In this document: one piece after another, positions 4,923 through 42,562 of the stretch | How positions within the stretch are numbered: position 1 is the stretch's first letter | How the letters are laid out: the number at the start of each line of letters is the position of its first letter | DNA from: a virus | Length of the DNA stretch: 43,895 bases | Virus record (IMG/VR): IMGVR_UViG_3300022680_000020 | Coordinates: 1 to 43,895 of that record | Reading direction: 5' to 3' (one strand) | Made by a program: the position numbers and the translations under genes | Notes under the pieces: model-generated | What the model was told of the DNA's origin: nothing | Databases searched by the model: none | The model's input: the letters and a program-made list of their open reading frames with translations, nothing else

Positions 4923-5138
4923 TATGCCACCGCTCGGGCGGCCGAACATGGTAGCCATATCAGGCATGGCCGCGAAGGACCTCTTCGAGCTCAGAGAGTA
5001 TTACATCGTCAAGCTCGTTCAAGCTCACCGTGCGCACGACTCCGACACGGTTGTCGTGTGTCTCGACTGGATTTCTGCGCTCGTCTCAGAGATGCGCATG
5101 AGAGGCGGCCGACCGACGGCCGCGCCGAGTGTCATCGC

Positions 5139-5142
<4 letters not shown>
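4912..5142 (+). CDS. Small hypothetical protein between portal and MuF genes
   Basis: 76 residues from ATG 4912, with upstream SD AGGGGAGGGG (4900-4909). The middle (AAKDLFELREYYIVKLVQAHRAHDSDTVVVCLDWISALVSEMRMRGG) looks helical. The stop overlaps the GTG start of the MuF gene (GTGA at 5139-5142). No family recognised. Confidence 0.6.
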
Positions 5143-7192
<2,050 letters not shown>

Positions 7193-7196
<4 letters not shown>

Positions 7197-17830: not shown

Positions 17831-18021
17831 CGATCCCCGAAAGGATCGACTGGTTTGTCTGGCGCCCCGTGTTTTCGCAGCACACTAGGGGCACGACGAA
17901 GGCTGAGGTAGACTCGCAATGGAGCATCCTAGATCTGGTCGATGCTCATGAATTGATCGACTTGCACGACGAGCTCGACCGGCGAGCGGCGGCGCAAGCG
18001 AAGCGGGGGAGCCGTGCCTAG
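17354..18021 (+). CDS. Tail assembly chaperone, -1 frameshift product (G-T type)
   Basis: A -1 slip at T-TTT-TTG moves translation into the frame reading ARLRDYGDAKRGRRIPGV and onward. It continues through RIDWFVWRPVFSQHTRGT, VDSQWSILDLVDAHELIDLHDELDRRAAAQ to TGA-side stop at 18019-18021. The shifted extension adds about 87 residues and ends inside the start of the tape measure gene. That matches the G/GT arrangement conserved in long-tailed phages, where the T domain recruits the tube protein to the tape measure. No independent start codon with SD is apparent for the extension. Confidence 0.75.
17752..17795 (+). promoter_or_regulatory. Programmed -1 frameshift signal (TTTTTTG plus stem)
   Basis: TTTTTTG at 17752-17758 is read in the zero frame as (TC)T TTT TTG, a canonical X-XXY-YYZ slippery heptamer. 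Two bases later CGCCTTCGC (17761-17769) can pair with GCGAGGGCG (17787-17795), eight Watson-Crick pairs and one G-U, a possible stimulatory stem. The short spacer suggests the lowest pairs may be open when the ribosome stalls. Confidence 0.8.
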
Positions 18022-20527
18022 TCTGCGAGACGTGTTCGTTCGGCTCGGAGTCAAGACCGACAAGAAGGACTTCGATCGGGCCGACAAGGGTATAGGCAAG
18101 CTCAAGGACGGCGCGAGCAAGCTCAGCTCTGTCATGAGAAACGCCATGGCGGCGCTCGTCGGCGTCGGCGTCGTCGCAGGGTTGCGCTCTATCACCGAAC
18201 AAACGAGGGCGCTCGGTGACCGCCTCGACAAGGTCTCTCAGCAAATAGGCGTCTCGGCCGACGCCCTACAAGAGTTCGAGTTCGCCGCGGGCCTCGCTGG
18301 CGCGAGCTCAGACGACGTCTCCATGTCGTTGCGCATTCTAGCGCGCAACGCTCTCGAGGCGTCGCAGGGCTCGAAGGAGTACGCCGACGACTTCAAGGCG
18401 CTAGGAATTCAGCTCACCGACGGCGCCGGTAGAATGCACACCGTCGACAACCTCCTCATGCAAGTCGCCGATGGTATGTCGCGCCTCGGCACCGACACCG
18501 AGCGGACGGCGCTCGCGCAATCGGTTCTCGGCCGCTCGGGCTCGAAGCTGATACCTCTTCTGAAGCAAGGCTCCGCAGCGATCGCCGAGCAACGGGCCGA
18601 GGCTCGCGAGCTCGGCCTCATGAATAAGCGACAGATCGCTCAGGCTGTCGAGCTCACTGATAACCAGCTCCGCATGAGCAAGGCGATCGCGACCGTCAAG
18701 TTCCTTCTCGTCGACCAGCTCCTACCCGGTATCAACGACGCAACGGTCGCCATGACCGATTGGCTAAAGAGCAACCGAGAGGCGATCCGTATCGGCCTCG
18801 GGCGTTTCTTCTCTCGCCTCGGTCGTGTGATCAAGGCCGTTGGCCGATTCATCGGATCCGTGGTAGACGCAACATCGTCATGGGCAGACGAGCTCGACCC
18901 CCTCGGAAAGCAGATACTAGGGATCGCGAAGATCGTCCTTGGGTTGCTCGCCGTCCTCATGCTTCCCGGGGGGGCGATGCTCCTCATTGGCGCCGCCGTC
19001 GCCCTATTGATCGAGGACTTCCAACGATGGCGTGAGGGGGGCGAGAGCGTCATCGGCGACCTGGTCGAGGCGTTTCGGGGGCTCGCCCTTTTCATCGGCG
19101 ACTGGGCTTCTGAGGCGCTCGCGCCCATCAAGTCGTGGGCGAAAGGCGCTGGCGCCGCGGTGGCCTCGGTGTTCGCCTCGGCGAAGGACGCACTCGCCGA
19201 GCTCGGCGCCGCCGTCGAGGGCTACGCGGGGCGCCTCTCCGAGGCCGGCGCGGCCCTCGGGCAATGGGTCGACGACCATCGCGAAGGCATCTCGATCGTT
19301 ACGTCGATGGCGACGGCCGCCGCCCTCGTCGTCTCGAGGGCATGGATTGCGTCGGCCGCCCGTGCGGCGCTGGCGTGGGTCCGATGGCACGCCCTCGGCG
19401 CGTCGATCTACTTGCGATACTTCCTCAAGGTCGTCGTGCCGACGGCGCTCAGAACCTCGGCGGCGTGGGTCGCCTCGGCGGCAAGGTCGTCGGCGGCGTG
19501 GGTTGTTGCGCAAGCCAGAATGGCCGCACGCTTCGTCGCCACCTCGGCGGCGGCCGTCGCCTCAGCAGTCGCCACCTCGGCGGCGTGGGTTGCCTCGGCG
19601 GCGCGTACGGCGGCCGCGTGGCTCGTCTCCATGGCGCCGCTCGTCCTCACCTCGGCGTTGCTCGCCATCATTGTCGGCACTGTGATCTTCCTCGGGCGCG
19701 AGCTCGTTCGGCTCGCCCTCGGGCAGGAGAACGTCTTCTCGACAATGTGGCAGGGAATCAAGGATCTCATTGCCAAGTACGGCGGGATCCTACCGGCCAT
19801 CGGCGAGATGCTCACCGAGGCGCTGCGCTATTGGGTTAAGTTTTTCGGAGGGACCGGCGAGCAAGTCGACAAGTGGGTCGCGTCCCTCAAGGCGACGCTC
19901 ACCGACGTTTGGGACACGACGATCGACTATTGGGAGACGAAGGCGAAGGCGTTTTTCGACTGGCTCGGCGAGCTCGTCCCAGACTTCGGTTTCGGTGTCG
20001 ACGACGAGGCCGAGGCCGAGGCCGAGGCCGAGGTCGAGAAGCCAGCGCCAGCGGACGATCGAGGGGCGCCGCCGCAACGGCCAGCGCTTGCGCGCCTCGC
20101 AGGAGCGACCGGCGCTGGCCCTCTGATAGACGATGCTCGGTATGGCGTCGCCGAGCTCGGTATGGGGGCCGGCGTCGGTCCACTGCGCCCCGGCGAGCCC
20201 GGGACCCCTGGCCTCTCAGGGGCGCCAGGGACCCCTGGCCTCTCAGGGGCGCCAGGGGCGCCAGGGGCGCCAGGGGCGGCCGGTTTACCGGGGGCCGAGG
20301 CTCTGCCATTCTTCGAGGCGTTCGCCGCTCCTACGGCCACCGCGGCACCGAGAAACGTCTCGCAGACCGTCACTCACAATGAGAGGCAGACCGTCAACGT
20401 CGAGGTTAAAGCGACCCCTGGCATGAACGAGGAGCGGCTCGCCGAGTCGACGGCGAGAGTGGTTAGTAAGGTCCTCGACAGCAAGCTCAGAATGGCGCAG
20501 CAGTCCTACGCCCTCGAGGCGCCATGA
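18014..20527 (+). CDS. Tail tape measure protein
   Basis: 837 residues from GTG 18014 with GGGGGAGCC upstream, overlapping the chaperone extension by 8 bp. The N-terminus (LRDVFVRLGVKTDKKDFDRADKGIGKLKDGASKLSSVMRNAMAALVGV) and the region IGVSADALQEFEFAAGLAG are typical. Hydrophobic, likely membrane-active segments lie at about 300-345 (ILGIAKIVLGLLAVLMLPGGAMLLIGAAVALLI) and 535-570. Ala/Trp/Ser repeats occupy about 480-540. Unusually, residues about 727-761 are a collagen-like Gly-X-Y tract. The protein sets tail length and may help DNA cross the membrane. Confidence 0.88.
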   Translation: MPSLRDVFVRLGVKTDKKDFDRADKGIGKLKDGASKLSSVMRNAMAALVGVGVVAGLRSITEQTRALGDRLDKVSQQIGVSADALQEFEFAAGLAGASSDDVSMSLRILARNALEASQGSKEYADDFKALGIQLTDGAGRMHTVDNLLMQVADGMSRLGTDTERTALAQSVLGRSGSKLIPLLKQGSAAIAEQRAEARELGLMNKRQIAQAVELTDNQLRMSKAIATVKFLLVDQLLPGINDATVAMTDWLKSNREAIRIGLGRFFSRLGRVIKAVGRFIGSVVDATSSWADELDPLGKQILGIAKIVLGLLAVLMLPGGAMLLIGAAVALLIEDFQRWREGGESVIGDLVEAFRGLALFIGDWASEALAPIKSWAKGAGAAVASVFASAKDALAELGAAVEGYAGRLSEAGAALGQWVDDHREGISIVTSMATAAALVVSRAWIASAARAALAWVRWHALGASIYLRYFLKVVVPTALRTSAAWVASAARSSAAWVVAQARMAARFVATSAAAVASAVATSAAWVASAARTAAAWLVSMAPLVLTSALLAIIVGTVIFLGRELVRLALGQENVFSTMWQGIKDLIAKYGGILPAIGEMLTEALRYWVKFFGGTGEQVDKWVASLKATLTDVWDTTIDYWETKAKAFFDWLGELVPDFGFGVDDEAEAEAEAEVEKPAPADDRGAPPQRPALARLAGATGAGPLIDDARYGVAELGMGAGVGPLRPGEPGTPGLSGAPGTPGLSGAPGAPGAPGAAGLPGAEALPFFEAFAAPTATAAPRNVSQTVTHNERQTVNVEVKATPGMNEERLAESTARVVSKVLDSKLRMAQQSYALEAP
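20192..20296 (+). repeat. Collagen-like Gly-X-Y tract encoded in the tape measure gene
   Basis: Eleven uninterrupted triplets (GEP GTP GLS GAP GTP GLS GAP GAP GAP GAA GLP) followed by GA. At the DNA level a 27-bp unit occurs twice and then a 9-bp unit GGGGCGCCA repeats, showing recent expansion. Such tracts are common in tail fibres but unexpected in a tape measure. Confidence 0.9.
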
Positions 20528-25982: not shown

Positions 25983-28900
25983 ATGCCGAACAAGCCAACG
26001 ACAGTGCCGAGCCTAGACACGAACGAGACGAACCGCGTGGCCCCCGTCGCATCAAAGGTCACCGACGGCTACGTTGCCAACGACACGCTACCGGCGAGCA
26101 ACGCGAACTATCTGTGGGGGTGGGCCGGCGACTGGCTGAGCTGGCTCGACGCGAATTTTGCCGATGGCAATAGCGCAGACGACCTTCGCATCTCGCCGCC
26201 CGGTTCCGGCGACCTCGAGGTCGACACCGACCTCGTCCCGGTAGGTGACAGCTCGCATCAACTCGGCATCAATGCCGAGCGATGGTCTGTCGGCTACATG
26301 AATCGCCTCGAGGTAGGACCGGCGAACGAGATCGAGACGAACTATTCTGCACACGTTCGCAATGAGAGTCTAGGTGGCGGCGCCCTTATCGCTGCGCAGA
26401 TCCTAACCGGCGACACGACAGGGATCACGAGGCGCGCGGCTCGCTTCGCAATTCAGGAGTCTTCTGGCGTCACTGGCAACGCGGCGAACGTGTACGGCGT
26501 ATCGTCGGTCTACTCCAAAATACAGGCGAACACAGTCGACAACGCCATCATGGTCCGCTCGGCTATCACATGCACAGAAGCCTCAGAGGTGACTCGGTTC
26601 GCTTCTTTCGAGGCTCAGTATTATGGTACGGTGGCACTCACTGCGACCGACATGTATGGCCTCTATCTGAGCGACCTGCCCAGTGCCTTCGTCGTCACAA
26701 ACCAGTATGGGATCTACCTCGAGGACCTCGACGAGGGGGCGAACAGCTACGGCCTCTGGATTCAAGGTGCGGGCACCGAGGCGATCCACGTCCAGAACGG
26801 ACTCTCGGTCTTCTGCGGAGTGCAGCCACGGCAGGCTGACAACTTCGACATCGGGGCCAGTGCGAACCGCTGGCAGAACGTGTTCGCCAACAGCGTCAAC
26901 CTGGATACCACCTACCGCATGGAGATGGACGCTGCTGGGCCGCGTATCATCTTCGACACGAACGACCGCCTCGACTACATCCGAGCGGCGGGAACAGGAC
27001 GTTGGGACTGGGTTATCGACAACGCGGACGTTGCCTCTCTCGGGGCCACCGAGCTTGCGCTAACTGTCGACATTGCCCCTACCGTGACTGAAACGCATAT
27101 CTGCGGAGCGAACGCTAGGCGCTGGTCCGAGGTAAACGCGAAGCAACTGTTCGTCGGGCCTACGAACCAAGAAACGACGTGGCAAGCCTACATTCGCAAC
27201 GGCGGGACGGCCATTGCGGACGGTGTCCTGTACGCCCACGATGATCAGTTTTCAGATATCACAGGCGTCACTCGCACGGGAGTCTATTCGCACTTTCAGA
27301 CGAACAGTGCGACCTCGGGGGCCGCCACACTGCTGAGGTGTTTCCGCTCGTTCCTGCAACTAAACCAGGGGACCCCTACCGCCGACAGTGCGATCGGCTA
27401 CGCCGCCGACGCCTATATCTCGAAGGGCCCGATCACACGTTACGCCGGGTTCGAGAGCGACCTTCGCGGTCTGAGCGACCCTGGCGTGACGACGGCCTAT
27501 CACGTCTATCTGCACAACGCAGAGGCCGGCGTCGACGTCGGGACTCAGTATGGCCTCTACCTAGAGGACATGACCGGGGGGGGCGCGAACTACGGGTTAT
27601 GGATCGCTGGCGCGAGCACAGAGGCACTTCGCGTCGACTCTGGCCTCTCGGTGTTCGGTGGCAACGTGCGGCCGAAAACGACCGAGACGTACAACCTCGG
27701 TTCTAACTCCCTCCGCTGGTCGGATGCCTACGTCGAACGTCTCGAGGTAGGCGAATCCGACAGCGAGGATGCGACATACCAGGCGCGAGTCAGGAACATC
27801 TCGCGCAGCGGTGGGGCGCTGCTCTGCGTCCAAACTCTGGACGGCGACATGACTGGAGTCACGAGGCGCGCCGCTAGGTTTGCGATCGGTGAAGGAGCAT
27901 TCGTCACCGGTAACGCCGAGAACGTGTACGGCGTATCGTCGGTCTACACGAAGATCGAGGCGAACAGCGTCGACAACGTGATCATGTATCGCTCGGCGAT
28001 CACCTGTACCGAGGCATCGACCATCACGAGATTCGCGGCGTTCGAGTCTCAACACTTCGGCACCGAGGCGCTGACCGCCACCGACTGGTATGGCCTTTTC
28101 GTCAACAACCTACCGAGTGCCTTCGTTGTCACGAATCAGTATGGCATCTACCTAGAGGACTTGGACGAGGGAGCGAACAGCTACGGGATCTGGATTGAGG
28201 GTGCGGGCACCGAGGCCATTCACGTGCAGAACGGCCTCTCGGTATTCTGCGGCGTTCAGCCACGGCAAGCTGACAACTTCGATATTGGGGCCAGCGACAA
28301 CCGCTGGCAGAACATCTTCGGAAATAGCGTCAACCTCGACACCGCCTACCGCTTGGAGATGGATGCCGCGGGACCGCGCATCGTGTTCGACACGAACGAC
28401 CGCCTGGATTACGTTCGGGCGGCTGGGGATGGGCGCTGGGACTGGGTCATCAACAACGTTGACGTTGCCTCTCTCGGGGCGACCCAGCTTGCGCTGACTG
28501 TCGATATTGCCCCTACCGTGACCGAGACGCATGTCTGCGGATCGAACGCTAAGCGATGGTCAGAGCTCAACACTCAGCAGCTTTTTGTCGGTCCTACCGG
28601 GCAGGAAGCTACATGGCAGGCGTACATCCGAAACGGCGGTACGGCGTTCGAGGACGGCGCGTTGTACGTCCACGACGATCAATATGCGAGTATCGCCGGG
28701 CTCACTCACGACGTCGTGTACTCACACTTTCAGACGAACGCGGCCACCTCAGGGGCCGCGTCTCTGATCCGTCTGTTCTCATCCTACTTCCATGCTCAGC
28801 AAGGCACGGCCACCGTCGATAGCGCCATCGGCTACAACGCCGATGCCTACATCTCGAAAGGTCCGGTCACTCGGTACGCCGGTTTCGAGAGCACCGTTCG

Positions 28901-29960
28901 AGGCTCTCTGAATCCAGGGATCACAAACGTCTACCACTTCATAGCCAACGACTGCGAGTCCGACGTCGGCGTGGTAAACCAGTATGGCGTGTACGTCGCG
29001 GGCATGACGGGCGCGACGAACAATTACGGTATACGAATTGGGTCGGTGACGGGCACGGTCGGGATCGGCCTGTATATCGCCGACGCGTCCGATGCAGCGA
29101 TACAGGTGCAGAGCGGCCTGTCAGCGTTCGGTGGTGGCGTCGTTCCGTTGACGCACAATGGCTCCGTTCTCGGCGGATCTGACAGAAGGTGGGGCAACGT
29201 CTACTCTGGCGCGCTCAACGTCCTAAGTGAAGTAGGGACGCCGGTTGCGTTCGAGAGGGATTCCGGCTCTCAGAACGACAGTACGTGGTCGACTCTACAG
29301 ATGAGGGCGAGCACAACCGAGGCGACGTGGGACGCGGGCTACGGGCCCCAGATATTCATGCAACGCGAGCGGGACGGCGGCACGATCAACACACTGGCGA
29401 TCCGCTCGCGCGCGGTGGCGACCGGGACGGCCAGCGATAGCTACATGGAGATCGCGACCTCGGACGACACCGACCTGCGAGAGGCGATGCGTCTCTACGC
29501 TGGCCGGTTGCAGGTCCTCGGCGACGTCCAACTCGTCCCGACGGATGCCTCGGGCGACCTCGGTTCTGACCACGCTCAGCATTGCGTCTCGACCGTCGCT
29601 CGCATTCGCGAGAGCGTCGGCACGGTCGTACAAGGGTCGCTACTCCGAGCGGTTCATAGTTCTGGCGGCGAGCTCGAGGTCGAGCTCACGAATTCAGCGG
29701 ACGCCGTGGGCGTCGTGTTCGGCGTCGCGCTCTCCGCTGGCTCCAACGGCACCGAGATTCAAGTCGCGACTCACGGGATGGCCCAAGTTCAAGTCAATTC
29801 TGGCCAGGCGACGACGGCCGGCGAGAGGGTCGTTAAGAGCACGACTCTGAGCGGCGTCGCGAACAGCGACGGGGCGCCGAGCGGCGGCGCTGCAATCGGG
29901 ACGTTCGTTGAGACGTCGGGTGCGGGCTCGACGCGCAACGTATGGTGTTACCTACACTGA
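25983..29960 (+). CDS. Large tail fibre built from duplicated units
   Basis: 1325 residues from ATG 25983 with GAGGGGAT upstream. A short N-terminal adaptor (NETNRVAPVASKVTDGYVANDTLPASNANYLWGWAGDWLSWLDANF) likely binds the baseplate. Two long copies of about 478 residues follow, each starting at an LG-x-N-x-x-RW motif. Recurrent NQYGIYLEDLDEGANSYG and SGLSVFGG segments also occur. The C-terminal 110 residues form a knob-like domain with VVQGSLLRAVHSSGGELEVELTNSADAVGVVFGVAL. No intramolecular chaperone endosialidase is visible. Likely host-recognition fibre. Confidence 0.85.
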   Translation: MPNKPTTVPSLDTNETNRVAPVASKVTDGYVANDTLPASNANYLWGWAGDWLSWLDANFADGNSADDLRISPPGSGDLEVDTDLVPVGDSSHQLGINAERWSVGYMNRLEVGPANEIETNYSAHVRNESLGGGALIAAQILTGDTTGITRRAARFAIQESSGVTGNAANVYGVSSVYSKIQANTVDNAIMVRSAITCTEASEVTRFASFEAQYYGTVALTATDMYGLYLSDLPSAFVVTNQYGIYLEDLDEGANSYGLWIQGAGTEAIHVQNGLSVFCGVQPRQADNFDIGASANRWQNVFANSVNLDTTYRMEMDAAGPRIIFDTNDRLDYIRAAGTGRWDWVIDNADVASLGATELALTVDIAPTVTETHICGANARRWSEVNAKQLFVGPTNQETTWQAYIRNGGTAIADGVLYAHDDQFSDITGVTRTGVYSHFQTNSATSGAATLLRCFRSFLQLNQGTPTADSAIGYAADAYISKGPITRYAGFESDLRGLSDPGVTTAYHVYLHNAEAGVDVGTQYGLYLEDMTGGGANYGLWIAGASTEALRVDSGLSVFGGNVRPKTTETYNLGSNSLRWSDAYVERLEVGESDSEDATYQARVRNISRSGGALLCVQTLDGDMTGVTRRAARFAIGEGAFVTGNAENVYGVSSVYTKIEANSVDNVIMYRSAITCTEASTITRFAAFESQHFGTEALTATDWYGLFVNNLPSAFVVTNQYGIYLEDLDEGANSYGIWIEGAGTEAIHVQNGLSVFCGVQPRQADNFDIGASDNRWQNIFGNSVNLDTAYRLEMDAAGPRIVFDTNDRLDYVRAAGDGRWDWVINNVDVASLGATQLALTVDIAPTVTETHVCGSNAKRWSELNTQQLFVGPTGQEATWQAYIRNGGTAFEDGALYVHDDQYASIAGLTHDVVYSHFQTNAATSGAASLIRLFSSYFHAQQGTATVDSAIGYNADAYISKGPVTRYAGFESTVRGSLNPGITNVYHFIANDCESDVGVVNQYGVYVAGMTGATNNYGIRIGSVTGTVGIGLYIADASDAAIQVQSGLSAFGGGVVPLTHNGSVLGGSDRRWGNVYSGALNVLSEVGTPVAFERDSGSQNDSTWSTLQMRASTTEATWDAGYGPQIFMQRERDGGTINTLAIRSRAVATGTASDSYMEIATSDDTDLREAMRLYAGRLQVLGDVQLVPTDASGDLGSDHAQHCVSTVARIRESVGTVVQGSLLRAVHSSGGELEVELTNSADAVGVVFGVALSAGSNGTEIQVATHGMAQVQVNSGQATTAGERVVKSTTLSGVANSDGAPSGGAAIGTFVETSGAGSTRNVWCYLH
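26283..29189 (+). repeat. Tandem duplication inside the tail fibre gene
   Basis: Unit 1 (26283-27716, 1434 bp) and unit 2 (27717-29189) align along their whole length at protein level. Some stretches are nearly identical, for example around 26697-26910 and 28131-28344. Unit 2 is 39 bp longer because of an insertion encoding about 13 residues near 29050-29090. Within each unit a half-length repeat is also visible. Confidence 0.9.
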
Positions 29961-38024: not shown

Positions 38025-38348
38025 CTAAGCCGATCTCGCTTGCTGCCGTGGTATGCGTTGTGAGCGCGGCACTATCCCTCGCTCGCGCGAGGCGCCGCTT
38101 CGGATCTGGCACCATGAATACACGTCGACCGCACCGTTCGTCGCCTTGTCGATGCGCACGGCGAGGTCGAGAGACGCGCGTCGGCGGCCGGCGAGGAGGT
38201 GCGAGATCTGCAATGGCGTGCAGTCCGCAAGCCGCGCGAGCTCGGAGATGTTCAGTTGCGTCTGACCGAGGAACCGGCGCAACCGCTCATGACCGATCGT
38301 GTTCGTCGGTCGTTTGCACCGCATCGGAGTGGTTATTAGATCTGCCAT
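38025..38348 (-). CDS. Cro/CI-like (XRE) transcriptional regulator
   Basis: 107 residues on the - strand, start ATG 38348-38346. The central HTH reads NISELARLADCTPLQISHLLAGRRRASLDLAVRIDKATNGAVD, a typical XRE domain with recognition helix near TPLQISHLLAGRRR. The C-terminus is short and basic, with no peptidase or oligomerisation domain, so it is more Cro-like than CI-like. It is the only convincing - strand gene and faces the early operon across an 89-bp spacer holding a CTAC-N5-GTAG palindrome. That makes it the prime candidate for reading this element genome-wide. Confidence 0.8.
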   Translation of the reverse strand: MADLITTPMRCKRPTNTIGHERLRRFLGQTQLNISELARLADCTPLQISHLLAGRRRASLDLAVRIDKATNGAVDVYSWCQIRSGASRERGIVPRSQRIPRQQARSA

Positions 38349-38947: not shown

Positions 38948-40015
38948 ATGCCAAGAATCTCAGCACTCCCGACGTTTATCTCCTGCCCCTCCTCTATGCT
39001 CGAAACCGAGCACCCATATGACCCTGGCTCTGTGGCGGGCCTCACGGGCGACGCCACCCACGACGCGCTTGCGACGCGCGTTTTGGGCTCGGTGCCGGAC
39101 GTACCAGCGATCGCCAAGAAACACGGTGTCGATCTCGACGAGCTCTCGTTTCTCGTCTCCTCTGGCGAGGCGGCGTGGCGTGAGGTTGAGAAACACTTCC
39201 CGAACCCCCGCACCGAGGAGCCGCTCGACGGAGGGGAGATCTGGGGGACGGCCGACGTTTTTGCATACGACGGCGTCCGCATGGGTATCCTCGATTGGAA
39301 AAGCAATCGAGTCAAGCGAGCCTATCTGCCGCAAGTCCTTGGGTATGTCGCCGCGGCCACCGCTCAATACGGTTGGCCAGAATCGGGCAAGGTCGTCGCG
39401 GTACTCGCCTGGCTTCGGTTCGGCGAGTTCGACGTCTGGACGTTCGACCGCTCCGACGTCGAGGGTCTGTATCACTCGGTCGAGCGTGCTCAGCGCGAGA
39501 TCGGAGAGGTCTATGCGCCGGGTGACCCATGCCATTATTGTCGCCGCCAGCTCGTGTGCAGTGCCCGTCACGAGTTTCTTTCCTCGGCGCGCGAGGCGGT
39601 TATCTCGGCGGCCGGCGTCGCAGTCACAAGGGAGGTTCTCGCTTCACTGTATCCGCGGGCGAAACTACTGCGCCATGCCCTCGACCAGTTTGACCAGGCC
39701 CTCCGCATCGCGCTGAGAGACGGCCCTCTCTCCGATGGCAACGACCACGAGCTCGCCCTCGTCGAGCAATCTCGAGACGTCATCGACGCGCAAGCCGCGT
39801 GGCCGATCCTGATAGAGAACGGACTCACCGAAAATCAACTAGCACAGTGCGTTACCATCGGCAAAACTAGGTTGCTATCTGCGTTTACCGATGGTAAGAA
39901 GCGAGGCACGAAGGGCGCTGCAAAAACAGAGCTAATGAGGGCTCTCAGCGAAGGCGGCGCAGTCAAAAAACGCGTAACCGAGGTTATGCAGATCAAAAAA
40001 CCCGGGGGGGGATAA
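38948..40015 (+). CDS. Cas4/RecB-like PD-(D/E)XK exonuclease
   Basis: 355 residues from ATG 38948. Residues 1-210 carry the Cas4/RecB-type features: C13 in ISCPSS, H39, D103 (GTADVF), D116-x-K118 (GILDWKS), Q129 and Y133 (QVLGY), then C195-xx-C198-x5-C204. The four cysteines could hold an iron-sulfur cluster. The C-terminal 140 residues are helical. It resembles DUF2800-type phage proteins. It would degrade DNA ends to feed the annealing protein encoded next (TAATG overlap). There is no SD; the palindrome sits in its place. Confidence 0.82.
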   Translation: MPRISALPTFISCPSSMLETEHPYDPGSVAGLTGDATHDALATRVLGSVPDVPAIAKKHGVDLDELSFLVSSGEAAWREVEKHFPNPRTEEPLDGGEIWGTADVFAYDGVRMGILDWKSNRVKRAYLPQVLGYVAAATAQYGWPESGKVVAVLAWLRFGEFDVWTFDRSDVEGLYHSVERAQREIGEVYAPGDPCHYCRRQLVCSARHEFLSSAREAVISAAGVAVTREVLASLYPRAKLLRHALDQFDQALRIALRDGPLSDGNDHELALVEQSRDVIDAQAAWPILIENGLTENQLAQCVTIGKTRLLSAFTDGKKRGTKGAAKTELMRALSEGGAVKKRVTEVMQIKKPGGG

Positions 40016-40908
40016 TGGACGACGAAGCCATGATGCTACATGCAGTCCCGGATGAGTTTCAAGAGAGTAGCGCGTTGCAGCGCGTCGAACCGACCGCCCT
40101 TGAGTCTGTGACTCGAGGCGAGGTCGACATGCAAGTGACGACCGCGAAGAGGTTCCCACGCAGCGTGCAGGCGTTCAAACGAGACGCCCTCTCGCTCGCG
40201 ACCGTCAACAAGGAAGTCGCGACCGCGTGCGTCTACGCGCTACCACGCGGGGGAAAAACGATCGAGGGACCGTCGGTGCGCCTCGCTGAGATCGTCGCCG
40301 GCGCGTGGGGTAACCTCCGAGTCGAGGCGAGAATCCTGTCGGCCGACGAAAAAGAGATCACAGCGCAAGCGACTTGCTGGGACATGCAAAGGAACGTCGC
40401 CGTCAAGATCGAGAAAAAGCGCCCTATCACAGGGAAAAACGGGCGAAGATTTAACGACGACATGATCACAATGGCGGGCAATGCGGCCGCATCAATCGCG
40501 CTGAGAAACGCGATCTTTCGCATCGTTCCCATGGCCTACATCAACGAGATCGTGACGCATTGCAAGCGCATCCGTGCGGGCGGCGGCAACGGCCTCGAGG
40601 AGACGCGGGCGAAGTGGATGCTCTACTTCGAGCGGCGAGGCTACTCGGCTGCTCAGGTGTGCGCGCTGCTGGACAAGACGGGCGTCGAGGACATCGACCT
40701 CGAGGACGTGGGGACACTCCAGGGCATTCACACCGCGGTCGACCAGGGTGAAACGACTCTCGAAGAAATCTTCTCGGAGATCGCGCCCGAGCTGAGCGCC
40801 GGAAAGCACGCGTTCGGCTTCGGAAAACGACGCGCCGGCGTTCGCAGCGCCGGCGCGCCCAGCAACGAAAAAGAGCCCGAGAGCGATCCCGATCCGTCCG
40901 ACCCCTGA
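40015..40908 (+). CDS. Putative single-strand annealing recombination protein
   Basis: 297 residues from ATG 40015, coupled to the nuclease by TAATG and preceded by a G8 tract acting as SD. The core GKTIEGPSVRLAEIVAGAWGNLRVEARILSADEKEITAQATCWDMQRNVAVKIEKKRPIT, followed by NDDMITMAGNAAASIALRNAIFRIVP, is a conserved phage family usually left unnamed. Its location after an exonuclease and its beta-rich core with a later helical tail fit a Rad52/Redbeta-like annealing protein. Function is inferred from context rather than from a diagnostic motif. The end is acidic and disordered. Confidence 0.7.
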   Translation: MDDEAMMLHAVPDEFQESSALQRVEPTALESVTRGEVDMQVTTAKRFPRSVQAFKRDALSLATVNKEVATACVYALPRGGKTIEGPSVRLAEIVAGAWGNLRVEARILSADEKEITAQATCWDMQRNVAVKIEKKRPITGKNGRRFNDDMITMAGNAAASIALRNAIFRIVPMAYINEIVTHCKRIRAGGGNGLEETRAKWMLYFERRGYSAAQVCALLDKTGVEDIDLEDVGTLQGIHTAVDQGETTLEEIFSEIAPELSAGKHAFGFGKRRAGVRSAGAPSNEKEPESDPDPSDP

Positions 40909-41025: not shown

Positions 41026-42030
41026 ATGCCGTGGGTTAGGCTGGACGACTCAATCTTAGATCACCCCAAACTGATCAACGCTGGCCCCATGGCCGAGCGG
41101 CTCTATATCCGGTCGATAGTCTGGTCGTCCAGGCATTTAACCGACGGCGCCGTGCCGAAAAAGGCCGTCGACCATATCTGTAGGTGGGACGGCGTCACGG
41201 CTCCGAGCAACGTCGAGCTCGCCGGCCACCTCGTCGAGGCCGGTCTCTGGCACCCGACCGAGGAGGGCTGGGCCATCCATGACTTCGCCGACTATCAGCC
41301 GAGCCGAGAGCAAGTCCTCGCGAAGCGGACGAAGGCGCGAGAGGCCGTCGAGACGAAGCGCGAGAAGACCCGAGAGAGGACTCGGAGGTGGCGAGAGCGG
41401 AAACGCTCCGAGCGTGACGCCGTCGACGTGACGCTCTCCGAGAGCGTCACCGAGCGTCACGGTGACGTCACCGAGCGTCACACGGTGTCACCGCTCGCAG
41501 CGGAGAGCGTCACCGACGCCCCGGTGACGCTTCTCGAGGCGACAGAAAAACCCTCAGAAATCAACGGTGTGACGCATGTGACGCTGCCGATTGCGGAGAG
41601 CGTCACACGTGACGCGAAACGCACGGGTGACGCGTCACACCCCCTTCCTCCCATCCCATCCCATAGATCAACTACAGAGAGAGAGAGAGATAGCACGGTG
41701 ACGCAATCCGAATGCGTCACAGGTCCGCTGTCGGCGGCCGACCTCGAGAAGGAGGGGTTCCGGCGTTTCGGGAGCCTCGGAGGTATCAACATCGTCCGGG
41801 CTCGCGAGCTCGCCCCCGTCGCGCGGTGGGAGTGGGATGCCGCACTCAAGACCGAGGGCAAGTCGTGGGCGTACGCCCTAAAGGTCCTCAGAAGCATGAG
41901 AGAGGAGCAAGCTAACCCCAAGCCTAGGGCCGCCTCGCCCTCGGCGCCTCGGCGCCCTCGGAGAGCTCAGGGGGGCAATCTGAGGCAAGCGACGGACAAG
42001 CTCATGGAGTGGGCGGTCGCTCATGGCTGA
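41026..42030 (+). CDS. Replication initiator-like winged-helix protein
   Basis: 334 residues from ATG 41026 with GAGGTGAC 5 bp upstream. The N-terminus (MPWVRLDDSILDHPKLINAGPMAERLYIRSIVWSSRHLTDGAVPKKAVDHI...VELAGHLVEAGLWHPTEEGWAIHDFADYQPSREQV) is a winged-helix domain shared by phage replisome organisers. The middle (about 125-230) is a low-complexity linker encoded by iteron-like repeats. The C-terminal domain (LEKEGFRRFGSLGGINIVRARELAPVARWEWDAAL) may contact the helicase. The following gene is a helicase-loader-like protein, supporting an initiation role. Confidence 0.75.
   Translation: MPWVRLDDSILDHPKLINAGPMAERLYIRSIVWSSRHLTDGAVPKKAVDHICRWDGVTAPSNVELAGHLVEAGLWHPTEEGWAIHDFADYQPSREQVLAKRTKAREAVETKREKTRERTRRWRERKRSERDAVDVTLSESVTERHGDVTERHTVSPLAAESVTDAPVTLLEATEKPSEINGVTHVTLPIAESVTRDAKRTGDASHPLPPIPSHRSTTERERDSTVTQSECVTGPLSAADLEKEGFRRFGSLGGINIVRARELAPVARWEWDAALKTEGKSWAYALKVLRSMREEQANPKPRAASPSAPRRPRRAQGGNLRQATDKLMEWAVAHG
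41414..41720. repeat. Iteron-like GTGACG/CGTCAC cluster, candidate replication origin
   Basis: About 17 copies of the hexamer GTGACG in either orientation lie within roughly 307 bp, several as back-to-back inverted pairs (for example GTGACGCGTCAC near 41632-41643). The cluster also holds A-rich stretches (GACAGAAAAACCC) and a GA dinucleotide run at about 41675-41689. Origins embedded in initiator genes are known from lambda O and many replisome organisers. Confidence 0.65.
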
Positions 42031-42562
42031 GACCATCACACGCCCCGAGTTCGTCGAGCTCATGACGCGACTCAGGACTTGCTACCCTCAGCCAATGAGC
42101 GACCCCGAGGCATGGATGGCCCTCGTCGCGACTTACTACTCCGTCGTCTCGAGGTACGACGCGCCCTCGGTTCGCCGTGCGATGGCGTCCGCATGGGCGC
42201 GCCACCGAGAATGGTTCCCGACCCTCGGCCAGCTCGTGGCCATCGTCGAGGGAGACTCTCCTCCCTCGCTTCGCGCCGCCGAGGCGTGGCCCGAGGTCCT
42301 TCGCCTCGCAGCGGGGGCAGGGGGCGCGCACTCCGACCCGACGGCGGCCGAGGCAATGGCGCTTATGGGCGGCGCCGACGGCCTCGGGCAATGGGACGCG
42401 AGGGAGCTAGAGCGCTACGGGCGAGCTCGCTTCGTCGCGACGTACGTCGAGCTGGTCGAGCGGCGGCGCCTCGGGCCTGGTAGGCCGGCGCTTCCCGACG
42501 CCGACCCGAGACTCGCGAGGCTCGCTGGGGAGGTGGCAGATCGGCGCGCGATGCAACGATAG
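42023..42562 (+). CDS. Helicase-loader-like protein
   Basis: 179 residues from ATG 42023, overlapping the initiator end by 8 bp. The N-terminal ITRPEFVELMTRLRTCYPQPMSDPEAWMALVATYYSVVSRYDAPSVRRAMASAWARHREWFPTLGQLVAIV resembles the helical N-domain of G39P-type loader/inhibitor proteins, including the common W-x-x-L...FPT-x-x-x-L pattern. The C-terminal half is a disordered, Ala/Arg-rich tail. Adjacent placement after an initiator gene supports delivery of the replicative helicase to the origin. Confidence 0.65.
   Translation: MAETITRPEFVELMTRLRTCYPQPMSDPEAWMALVATYYSVVSRYDAPSVRRAMASAWARHREWFPTLGQLVAIVEGDSPPSLRAAEAWPEVLRLAAGAGGAHSDPTAAEAMALMGGADGLGQWDARELERYGRARFVATYVELVERRRLGPGRPALPDADPRLARLAGEVADRRAMQR

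What the first reader, a model, noticed from the sequence alone, without database searches (positions are those of the whole stretch)
41414..41720. Iteron cluster inside the initiator gene as probable origin
About 17 GTGACG/CGTCAC hexamers in 307 bp, many as inverted pairs, next to A-rich and GA-repeat DNA, within the linker-coding part of a winged-helix initiator. The repeat, not the protein, appears to be under selection there.
Basis: partly seen in the sequence, partly recalled or inferred. Interest (0 to 1): 0.6.

Follow-up and report, generated by a model that had tools for sequence, protein, structure and literature searches.

The report
Phage replication origin inside initiator gene
A phage packs about 17 copies of a six-letter DNA word into the flexible middle of its replication-initiator gene, and the same layout (repeats, then a C-rich run, often a hairpin) recurs in the initiator genes of many related phages, so this is very probably where the phage starts copying its DNA.

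Summary
They use all three codon frames and both strands, and far exceed synonymous recodings of the same protein (mean 4.7, max 10 of 3000). The gene (41026-42030) is a phrog_2447 replication initiator, next to a G39P-like helicase-loader candidate.

Comparison with 94 non-redundant relatives shows one case of a family-wide architecture. The DNA between the N-terminal domain and the C-terminal part carries (1) short inverted/direct iterons, most often GTAACG or GTGAC, then (2) a polar C-rich tract of CCC runs about 2 nt apart (67/95 vs 5% of background windows), whose lower strand has a G-quadruplex motif, then often (3) a perfect hairpin. In Propionibacterium phages G4 and Anatole the initiator ORF stops early and iterons plus C-tract lie in non-coding DNA, so DNA rather than protein is selected.

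Best reading: an initiator-gene-internal theta origin, working like lambda ori or the pSK41 ori but with a different initiator family. Origin activity, protein binding and G-quadruplex formation are inferred, not shown.

The parts
41026..42030 (+). Replication initiator gene (334 aa), phrog_2447 family
   Evidence: phrog_2447 'replication initiation protein' E 7.6e-32 over residues 1-224; tblastn to annotated RepA-like initiators of actinophages, 35-38% over residues 1-104
41026..41340 (+). Conserved N-terminal domain (about residues 1-105), presumed winged-helix DNA-binding domain
   Evidence: alignment A5 of 35 relatives, 29-45% identity; fold not confirmed (Phage_rep_org_N only at E 0.06 in 4 of 35 members; no reliable PDB sequence match)
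41414..41638 (.). Iteron array: 15 GTGACG/CGTCAC plus one GTGAC variant (41487), both strands, several inverted pairs, partly spaced by 10-11 bp
   Evidence: in relatives GTNAC iterons peak in the 50 bp before the C-tract (1.17 per 50 bp per locus against about 0.1-0.2 in flanks)
41640..41662 (+). C-tract CCCCCTTCCTCCCATCCCATCCC; lower strand GGGATGGGATGGGAGGAAGGGGG is a canonical G-quadruplex motif
   Evidence: G4Hunter-like score -2.2; same element in 67/95 family members against 41/834 background windows
41677..41690 (+). (GA)7 purine repeat in the locally A+T-richer stretch 41660-41699
41698..41720 (.). Last two iterons as an inverted pair: perfect 8-bp stem GTGACGCA / TGCGTCAC with a 7-nt loop
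   Evidence: 35% of relatives with a C-tract have a perfect stem of 8 bp or more within 75 bp 3' of the tract against 2.3% of background windows
41731..42027 (+). C-terminal part of the initiator, presumed to contact the helicase or its loader
   Evidence: open frame continues; no family match of its own, and no relative found in viral contigs with this part alone; function inferred
42023..42562 (+). Helicase-loader candidate, overlapping the end of the initiator gene
   Evidence: Inhibitor_G39P (PF11417) E 0.0026, below its gathering score; phrog_109 P-like helicase loader E 0.006; the same neighbour is annotated 'loader and inhibitor of phage' in L003 and 'helicase loader' in L006
38948..40015 (+). 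Exonuclease of the recombination module upstream (context)
   Evidence: phrog_69 exonuclease E 3.7e-20
40015..40908 (+). Probable single-strand annealing protein (context)
   Evidence: phrog_3657 E 4e-51, unnamed family; homologues annotated 'ssDNA binding protein' in Gordonia phages

Best explanation
41414-41720 is the cis-acting core of this phage's replication origin, placed in the segment of the initiator gene that encodes the flexible linker between the initiator's DNA-binding and C-terminal parts. Most likely mechanism: (1) the N-terminal domain of the initiator binds GTGACG(C) iterons on both strands (inferred); (2) many copies, partly phased at about one helical turn and paired as inverted repeats, allow a compact nucleoprotein complex like the lambda O-some (spacing shown, complex inferred); (3) the strained DNA opens next to the array, at or beside the polar C-tract and the A+T-richer GA stretch 41640-41699, where G-rich folding of the lower strand may help hold the strands apart (inferred); (4) the C-terminal part and the G39P-like product of 42023-42562 load a DnaB-type helicase (inferred from gene order and weak family matches). 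Peptide sequence in the linker is nearly free, so it drifts to whatever the origin DNA encodes (shown by the nulls and by relatives).
For: 17 hexamers, p about 1e-22. Beyond peptide: synonymous recoding gives 4.7 (max 10), codon shuffling 1.2 (max 6); all frames used. Gene is an initiator homologue, with a loader candidate next door. In 86 non-redundant relatives CGTTAC/GTAACG is found 105 times against 4.5 expected after the N-terminal domain; spacings of 12 and 24 bp (same strand) and 8, 20 and 32 bp (opposite strands) recur. The two nearest rows by N-terminal tree, L122 and L169, carry GTAATG/GTAACG pairs at the same site; the sibling phage L002 has three GTGAC within 25 bp there. C-tract 67/95 vs 5%, codon-shuffled linkers (stricter pattern, loops 1-4) 62 observed vs 1.5 expected. 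Split-type phages G4 and Anatole hold iterons plus C-tract in non-coding DNA right after a short initiator ORF. Precedents: the lambdoid ori lies in the middle of gene O (PMC7466680); pSK41 ori lies centrally in rep and the residues encoded there are dispensable (PMC5703833).
Against: No functional data. GC skew has no inflection near 41.5 kb. No strongly A+T-rich unwinding element. Exact iteron sequence is not conserved, and iteron type follows the tree only weakly (31 changes, shuffled mean 38.1). 14 of 95 members lack a C-tract, including the nearest relatives L122 and L169 and the sibling phage L002. The fold of the N-terminal domain is unverified.
Confidence: 0.85

Rival explanations
1. 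The cluster is a regulatory array: the initiator (or another phage regulator) binds it to repress or time its own gene or the downstream loader, and the replication origin is elsewhere.
For: Many initiators autoregulate through iterons (own knowledge). The array is strand-symmetric, as operators often are.
Against: The array lies about 390 bp inside the gene, not at a promoter. In relatives it stays between the two halves of the initiator, or just after a short initiator ORF, and is followed by a C-tract and often a hairpin, which operators do not explain.
Confidence: 0.08
2. Protein-level repeat: the linker peptide (VT, RH, ESVT units) is selected, and the DNA repeats follow from it.
For: Several hexamers are VT codons in frame (GTG ACG); linker peptides of relatives often show VT or RNGVTN units.
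Against: The hexamer occurs in all three frames and as five different dipeptide contexts; the observed count exceeds every synonymous recoding; split relatives keep the repeats in non-coding DNA; C-tract starts fall in all three frames and its spacers vary.
Confidence: 0.03
3. Another DNA site: partition (parS-like), packaging (pac) or recombination site that happens to lie in this gene.
For: RepA-encoding mycobacteriophage replicons can have repeat-type parS sites next to repA (PMC7157519).
Against: No parAB was recognised among the ORFs examined (not searched exhaustively); the terminase genes lie at the other end of the record; the array stays with the initiator family, not with those functions.
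Confidence: 0.03

Closest known systems
Lambda / Stx-phage ori inside gene O (PMC7466680)
   Same: Iterons that bind the phage initiator lie in the middle of the initiator's own coding sequence; helicase-loader gene (P) directly downstream; a special-composition tract next to the iterons.
   Different: Lambdoid origins have 4-6 iterons of about 19 bp, each an imperfect inverted repeat, plus an AT-rich tract. Here there are about 18 short 5-7-bp cores and a C-rich/GA tract; the initiator hits no lambda O family.
pSK41-type RepA_N plasmid replicons, and pPR9 with a phage-type HTH domain (PMC5703833)
   Same: ori lies centrally in rep, between the DNA-binding N-terminal domain and the C-terminal domain, and the encoded residues are dispensable; in pPR9 the N-terminal domain plus origin segment differs as one block from pSK41.
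   Different: No RepA_N, HTH_36 or Phage_rep_org_N match in the window protein; GC-rich element with a C-tract and hairpin.
RepA-like replication initiators of actinophages (phrog_2447; e.g. Mycobacterium prophiT36-2a, Gordonia JKSyngboy, Propionibacterium G4 and Anatole)
   Same: Homologous N-terminal domain, same gene neighbourhood, iterons and (mostly) a C-tract at the same position.
   Different: Window has the highest copy number of iterons in the set and lacks the classic (CCCGA)n sequence, using CCCAT/CCCTTCCT units instead; host unknown.
RepA-dependent origins of parABS mycobacteriophages Miko, Rachaly, Jeeves (PMC7157519)
   Same: repA plus short flanking DNA (171 bp upstream for Miko) is enough for autonomous replication; the authors found no repeats between tail genes and parS-L and suspected an origin just upstream of or within repA.
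   Different: Predicted HTH at residues 95-132 instead of the first 100 residues; membership in the same family was not tested here.

Membership tests
phrog_2447 phage replication initiators | Sequence similarity of the initiator to the family profile | tested here: met
   E 7.6e-32, residues 1-224
phrog_2447 phage replication initiators | Iterons in the DNA just after the N-terminal domain (feature derived here) | tested here: met
phrog_2447 phage replication initiators | C-tract with G-quadruplex motif on the lower strand, 3' of the iterons (feature derived here) | tested here: met
   41640-41662; loops of 1-7 nt pass, loops of 1-4 nt do not because one spacer is 5 nt
phrog_2447 phage replication initiators | Perfect hairpin a few bp after the C-tract | tested here: inconclusive
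   8-bp stem present but 36 bp downstream and built of iterons
Lambdoid O-gene origin | Origin iterons inside the initiator gene | tested here: met
Lambdoid O-gene origin | Few iterons of about 19 bp, each an imperfect inverted repeat | tested here: not met
   conserved core is 5-7 bp, about 18 copies
Lambdoid O-gene origin | AT-rich unwinding tract beside the iterons | tested here: inconclusive
   only 53% A+T at best
Lambdoid O-gene origin | Initiator homologous to lambda O | tested here: not met
   no such family among Pfam or PHROG hits of the initiator
RepA_N plasmid replicon (pSK41 type) | RepA_N domain (PF06970) | tested here: not met
   no match in the window protein nor listed for its 34 aligned relatives
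Functional replication origin (any) | Autonomous replication, initiator binding, replication peak at the site | not testable with these tools
   needs experiment or reads; composition skew uninformative

The most novel reading that the evidence does not exclude
A large family of phage initiator genes (phrog_2447, mostly actinophages) carries a conserved composite origin in its linker DNA: iterons, then a polar tract of CCC runs separated by about 2 variable nt, then often a hairpin. The conserved run length with variable spacers suggests that G-quadruplex (or i-motif) folding of the tract is the strand-specific unwinding or helicase-loading element in these GC-rich origins, in place of the usual AT-rich element. 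The iteron sequence itself is exchanged quickly between relatives while the rest of the layout stays.
Probability: 0.25. Interest if true: 0.75.

Novelty: new variant of a known kind. Interest (0 to 1): 0.52.

Why it matters
Origins of most actinophages with RepA-like initiators are not mapped in the papers found here, and one study of RepA-dependent mycobacteriophage replicons reported no repeats (PMC7157519; family identity with this one untested). The layout found here gives a precise, testable prediction in hundreds of phage genomes, of which cultured ones such as Propionibacterium phages G4 and Anatole are convenient because the element is non-coding there. It also gives a clean case of coding DNA in which the nucleotide element dictates the peptide, and it raises a specific question: whether a C-tract with G-quadruplex potential can serve as an origin unwinding element.

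Tried and rejected
Iteron type against N-terminal tree: 31 changes vs shuffled mean 38.1, minimum 31, only weak signal, so co-evolution of protein and iteron is not demonstrated. Full-length and C-terminal-only searches for close relatives in viral contigs found none; the pattern GTGACGN{0,20}GTGACG was absent from the 11 contigs reached through sheath, terminase and annealing-protein relatives, most of which are fragments. First alignment for collection scans was too diverse. GC skew and third-position skew: no inflection, but all genes run one way, so uninformative. Rfam: only a chance-level match to RsmW at E 0.8. A Rho-utilisation reading of the C-rich RNA was considered and set aside: the tract is translated in fused genes.

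Full report
Observation. The cluster is exactly as described: nine GTGACG and eight CGTCAC between 41414 and 41720, and an eighteenth GTGAC core at 41487. The rest of the 43,895-bp record (an IMG/VR virus record that is the window itself) has 53 copies, 0.36 per 300 bp; the Poisson probability of 17 in 307 bp is about 1e-22. No other part of the record has a comparable two-strand 6-mer cluster; the other dense 6-mers near 6 kb are one-strand tandem repeats in a head gene. The conserved core extends to GTGACGC in 15 copies.

Protein or DNA? Keeping the linker peptide and recoding with the phage's own codons gives 4.7 hexamers on average and never more than 10 in 3000 draws; shuffling the codon order gives 1.2 (maximum 6). 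Hexamers sit in all three codon frames: GTGACG as V-T in frame and out of frame, CGTCAC as R-H and out of frame. The peptide therefore does not explain them.

The gene. ORF 41026-42030 matches PHROG 2447 'replication initiation protein' (E 7.6e-32) and two further initiator or unnamed families over its first part, and by tblastn the initiators of Mycobacterium, Gordonia, Streptomyces, Propionibacterium, Microbacterium and Arthrobacter phages over residues 1-104. The next gene is a weak match to the phage helicase loader G39P, and the same neighbour is annotated as loader in prophiT36-2a and in Bush. Upstream lie an exonuclease and a probable annealing protein.

Relatives. 80 loci from viral contigs, 24 prophages, 17 annotated phage or plasmid loci and the sibling phage L002 were compared. 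In 86 non-redundant relatives the 420 bp after the N-terminal domain contain CGTTAC/GTAACG 105 times against 4.5 expected from the rest of the same loci. By best-fitting iteron type, 20 rows are GTAAC, 16 GTGAC (window included), 16 CGAAC, 12 AAGCA and 3 GGGAC, with 27 unassigned. These labels use a simple count threshold and should be read as approximate. Iterons concentrate just before the C-tract: 1.17 GTNAC per 50 bp per locus in the last 50 bp, 0.56 in the 50 bp before, against roughly 0.1-0.2 in flanks. GTAACG iterons show same-strand spacings of 12 and 24 bp and opposite-strand spacings of 8, 20 and 32 bp; a 12-bp period is also four codons, so in fused genes it may partly reflect duplication in frame. 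In the window, where spacings are 10, 11, 10, 10 bp, that does not apply. The two rows nearest to the window in the N-terminal tree (L122, L169; support 86) have GTAATG and GTAACG inverted pairs at the same place. L002, which shares the sheath (67%) and annealing protein (51%), has three GTGAC within 25 bp there.

A second element. Searching the same region for other signals revealed a C-tract: four or more runs of CCC with spacers of 1-7 nt in 67 of 95 members (window included) against 41 of 834 background windows; the opposite polarity occurs in only 4. With spacers of 1-4 nt the count is 62 of 95 against 15 of 834, and codon-shuffled linkers give 1.5 (maximum 4). Spacers are mostly 2 nt and vary (GA, GT, GG, AT, AA and others), while the run length is mostly 3. 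The tract encodes RPDPTRP, RPVPSRP, PLPSPP and similar peptides in fused genes, starting in all three frames (42, 21 and 18 cases). The window's version is CCCCCTTCCTCCCATCCCATCCC (41640-41662), lower strand GGGATGGGATGGGAGGAAGGGGG. It is one of three such + strand motifs in the record; the other two lie in the tandem repeats near 6.2 kb.

A third element. Within 75 bp after the tract, 35% of members that have one carry a perfect hairpin with a stem of at least 8 bp, against 2.3% of background windows, usually starting 2-8 bp after the tract. The window's nearest equivalent is the inverted pair of its last two iterons (41698-41720), 36 bp after the tract, which is a weaker match to the pattern.

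Split genes as a natural control. In Propionibacterium phages G4 and Anatole the initiator ORF stops after the N-terminal domain (131 and 121 aa) and a gap of 171-189 bp follows before the next gene. It contains iterons (G4: six or seven GTGAC cores, depending on how far upstream one counts; Anatole: GTAAGC(A) type), then the C-tract (CCCGTCCCGGCCCGTCCCGTCCCGGCCCG; CCCCGTACCCGTACCCGTACCCG). Arthrobacter Sarge has GGAACG/CGTTCC repeats and a GACCAA repeat in its gap; Ardmore and Sneeze have gaps or short ORFs without these exact elements. Annotation of these ORFs is the depositors'. The same DNA thus occurs both as coding linker and as non-coding spacer.

Interpretation. Iterons for the family's own initiator, next to a tract of unusual strand composition and a hairpin, between initiator and helicase-loader functions, are the anatomy of a theta-type origin. 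Precedents for an origin in the middle of the initiator gene are lambdoid gene O (PMC7466680) and pSK41 rep, where the encoded residues are dispensable (PMC5703833). For mycobacteriophage RepA replicons the authors found no repeats between the tail genes and parS-L and suspected an origin just upstream of or within repA (PMC7157519); whether that RepA belongs to this family was not tested. My literature searches found no description of the iteron/C-tract/hairpin layout, but they cover open-access papers only.

What is shown and what is inferred. Shown: the cluster, its excess over peptide-preserving nulls, homology to initiators, recurrence of iterons, C-tract and hairpin in relatives, and their presence in non-coding DNA of split types. 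Inferred: that the initiator binds the hexamers, that replication starts here, that the C-tract folds or unwinds, and that the downstream gene loads the helicase. Uncertain: the fold of the N-terminal domain, the host, and whether iteron type co-evolves with the protein (weak signal).

Verdict. The site is a new variant of a known kind (initiator-gene-internal origin), and the comparative layout, above all the polar C-tract, is the more novel part.

Noticed in passing
window 5058-7196: Head-morphogenesis protein (Phage_Mu_F, residues 196-302) fused through a (VAP)n repeat to a C-terminal segment that matches PI3_PI4_kinase (PF00454, E 1.2e-6, above its gathering score, residues 512-592, with NDDRH and IDNG motifs): a kinase-like domain on a minor head protein.
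   Followed up: partly
window 18014-20527, repeats near 20190-20330: Tape-measure protein with collagen-like GXX repeats (GTPGLSGAPGTPG...) near its C-terminus.
   Followed up: no
window 25983-29960: 1325-aa protein in the tail-gene region with long internally repeated segments; its only family match is a weak cement-protein-like C-terminus.
   Followed up: no
L010, L011, L012 (sheath relatives): Tail sheath homologues 77-79% identical to the window's, but the match spans about 1950 bp for 434 aa, suggesting an insertion of about 200 aa relative to the window's sheath.
   Followed up: no
L100 2501-2893: Actinomycetaceae prophage initiator with an insertion rich in VT units (DVTPHVTQDVTQ) inside the N-terminal domain itself, i.e. 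possible extra iterons there.
   Followed up: no
L005 3337-3547, L007 3397-3567, L201 2367-2579, L208 2367-2555: Gaps after split initiator ORFs also share a downstream stretch such as TTACGTAAGTGCCAAG (G4, Anatole) or ACTCACCTTGG (Sarge has ACTCACCTTGA, Ardmore ACTCACCTTGG), a possible further origin motif.
   Followed up: no
window 38025-38348 (-): Cro/CI-like HTH regulator, the only clear minus-strand regulator found; suggests a temperate ancestry, though no integrase was recognised among the ORFs examined.
   Followed up: no
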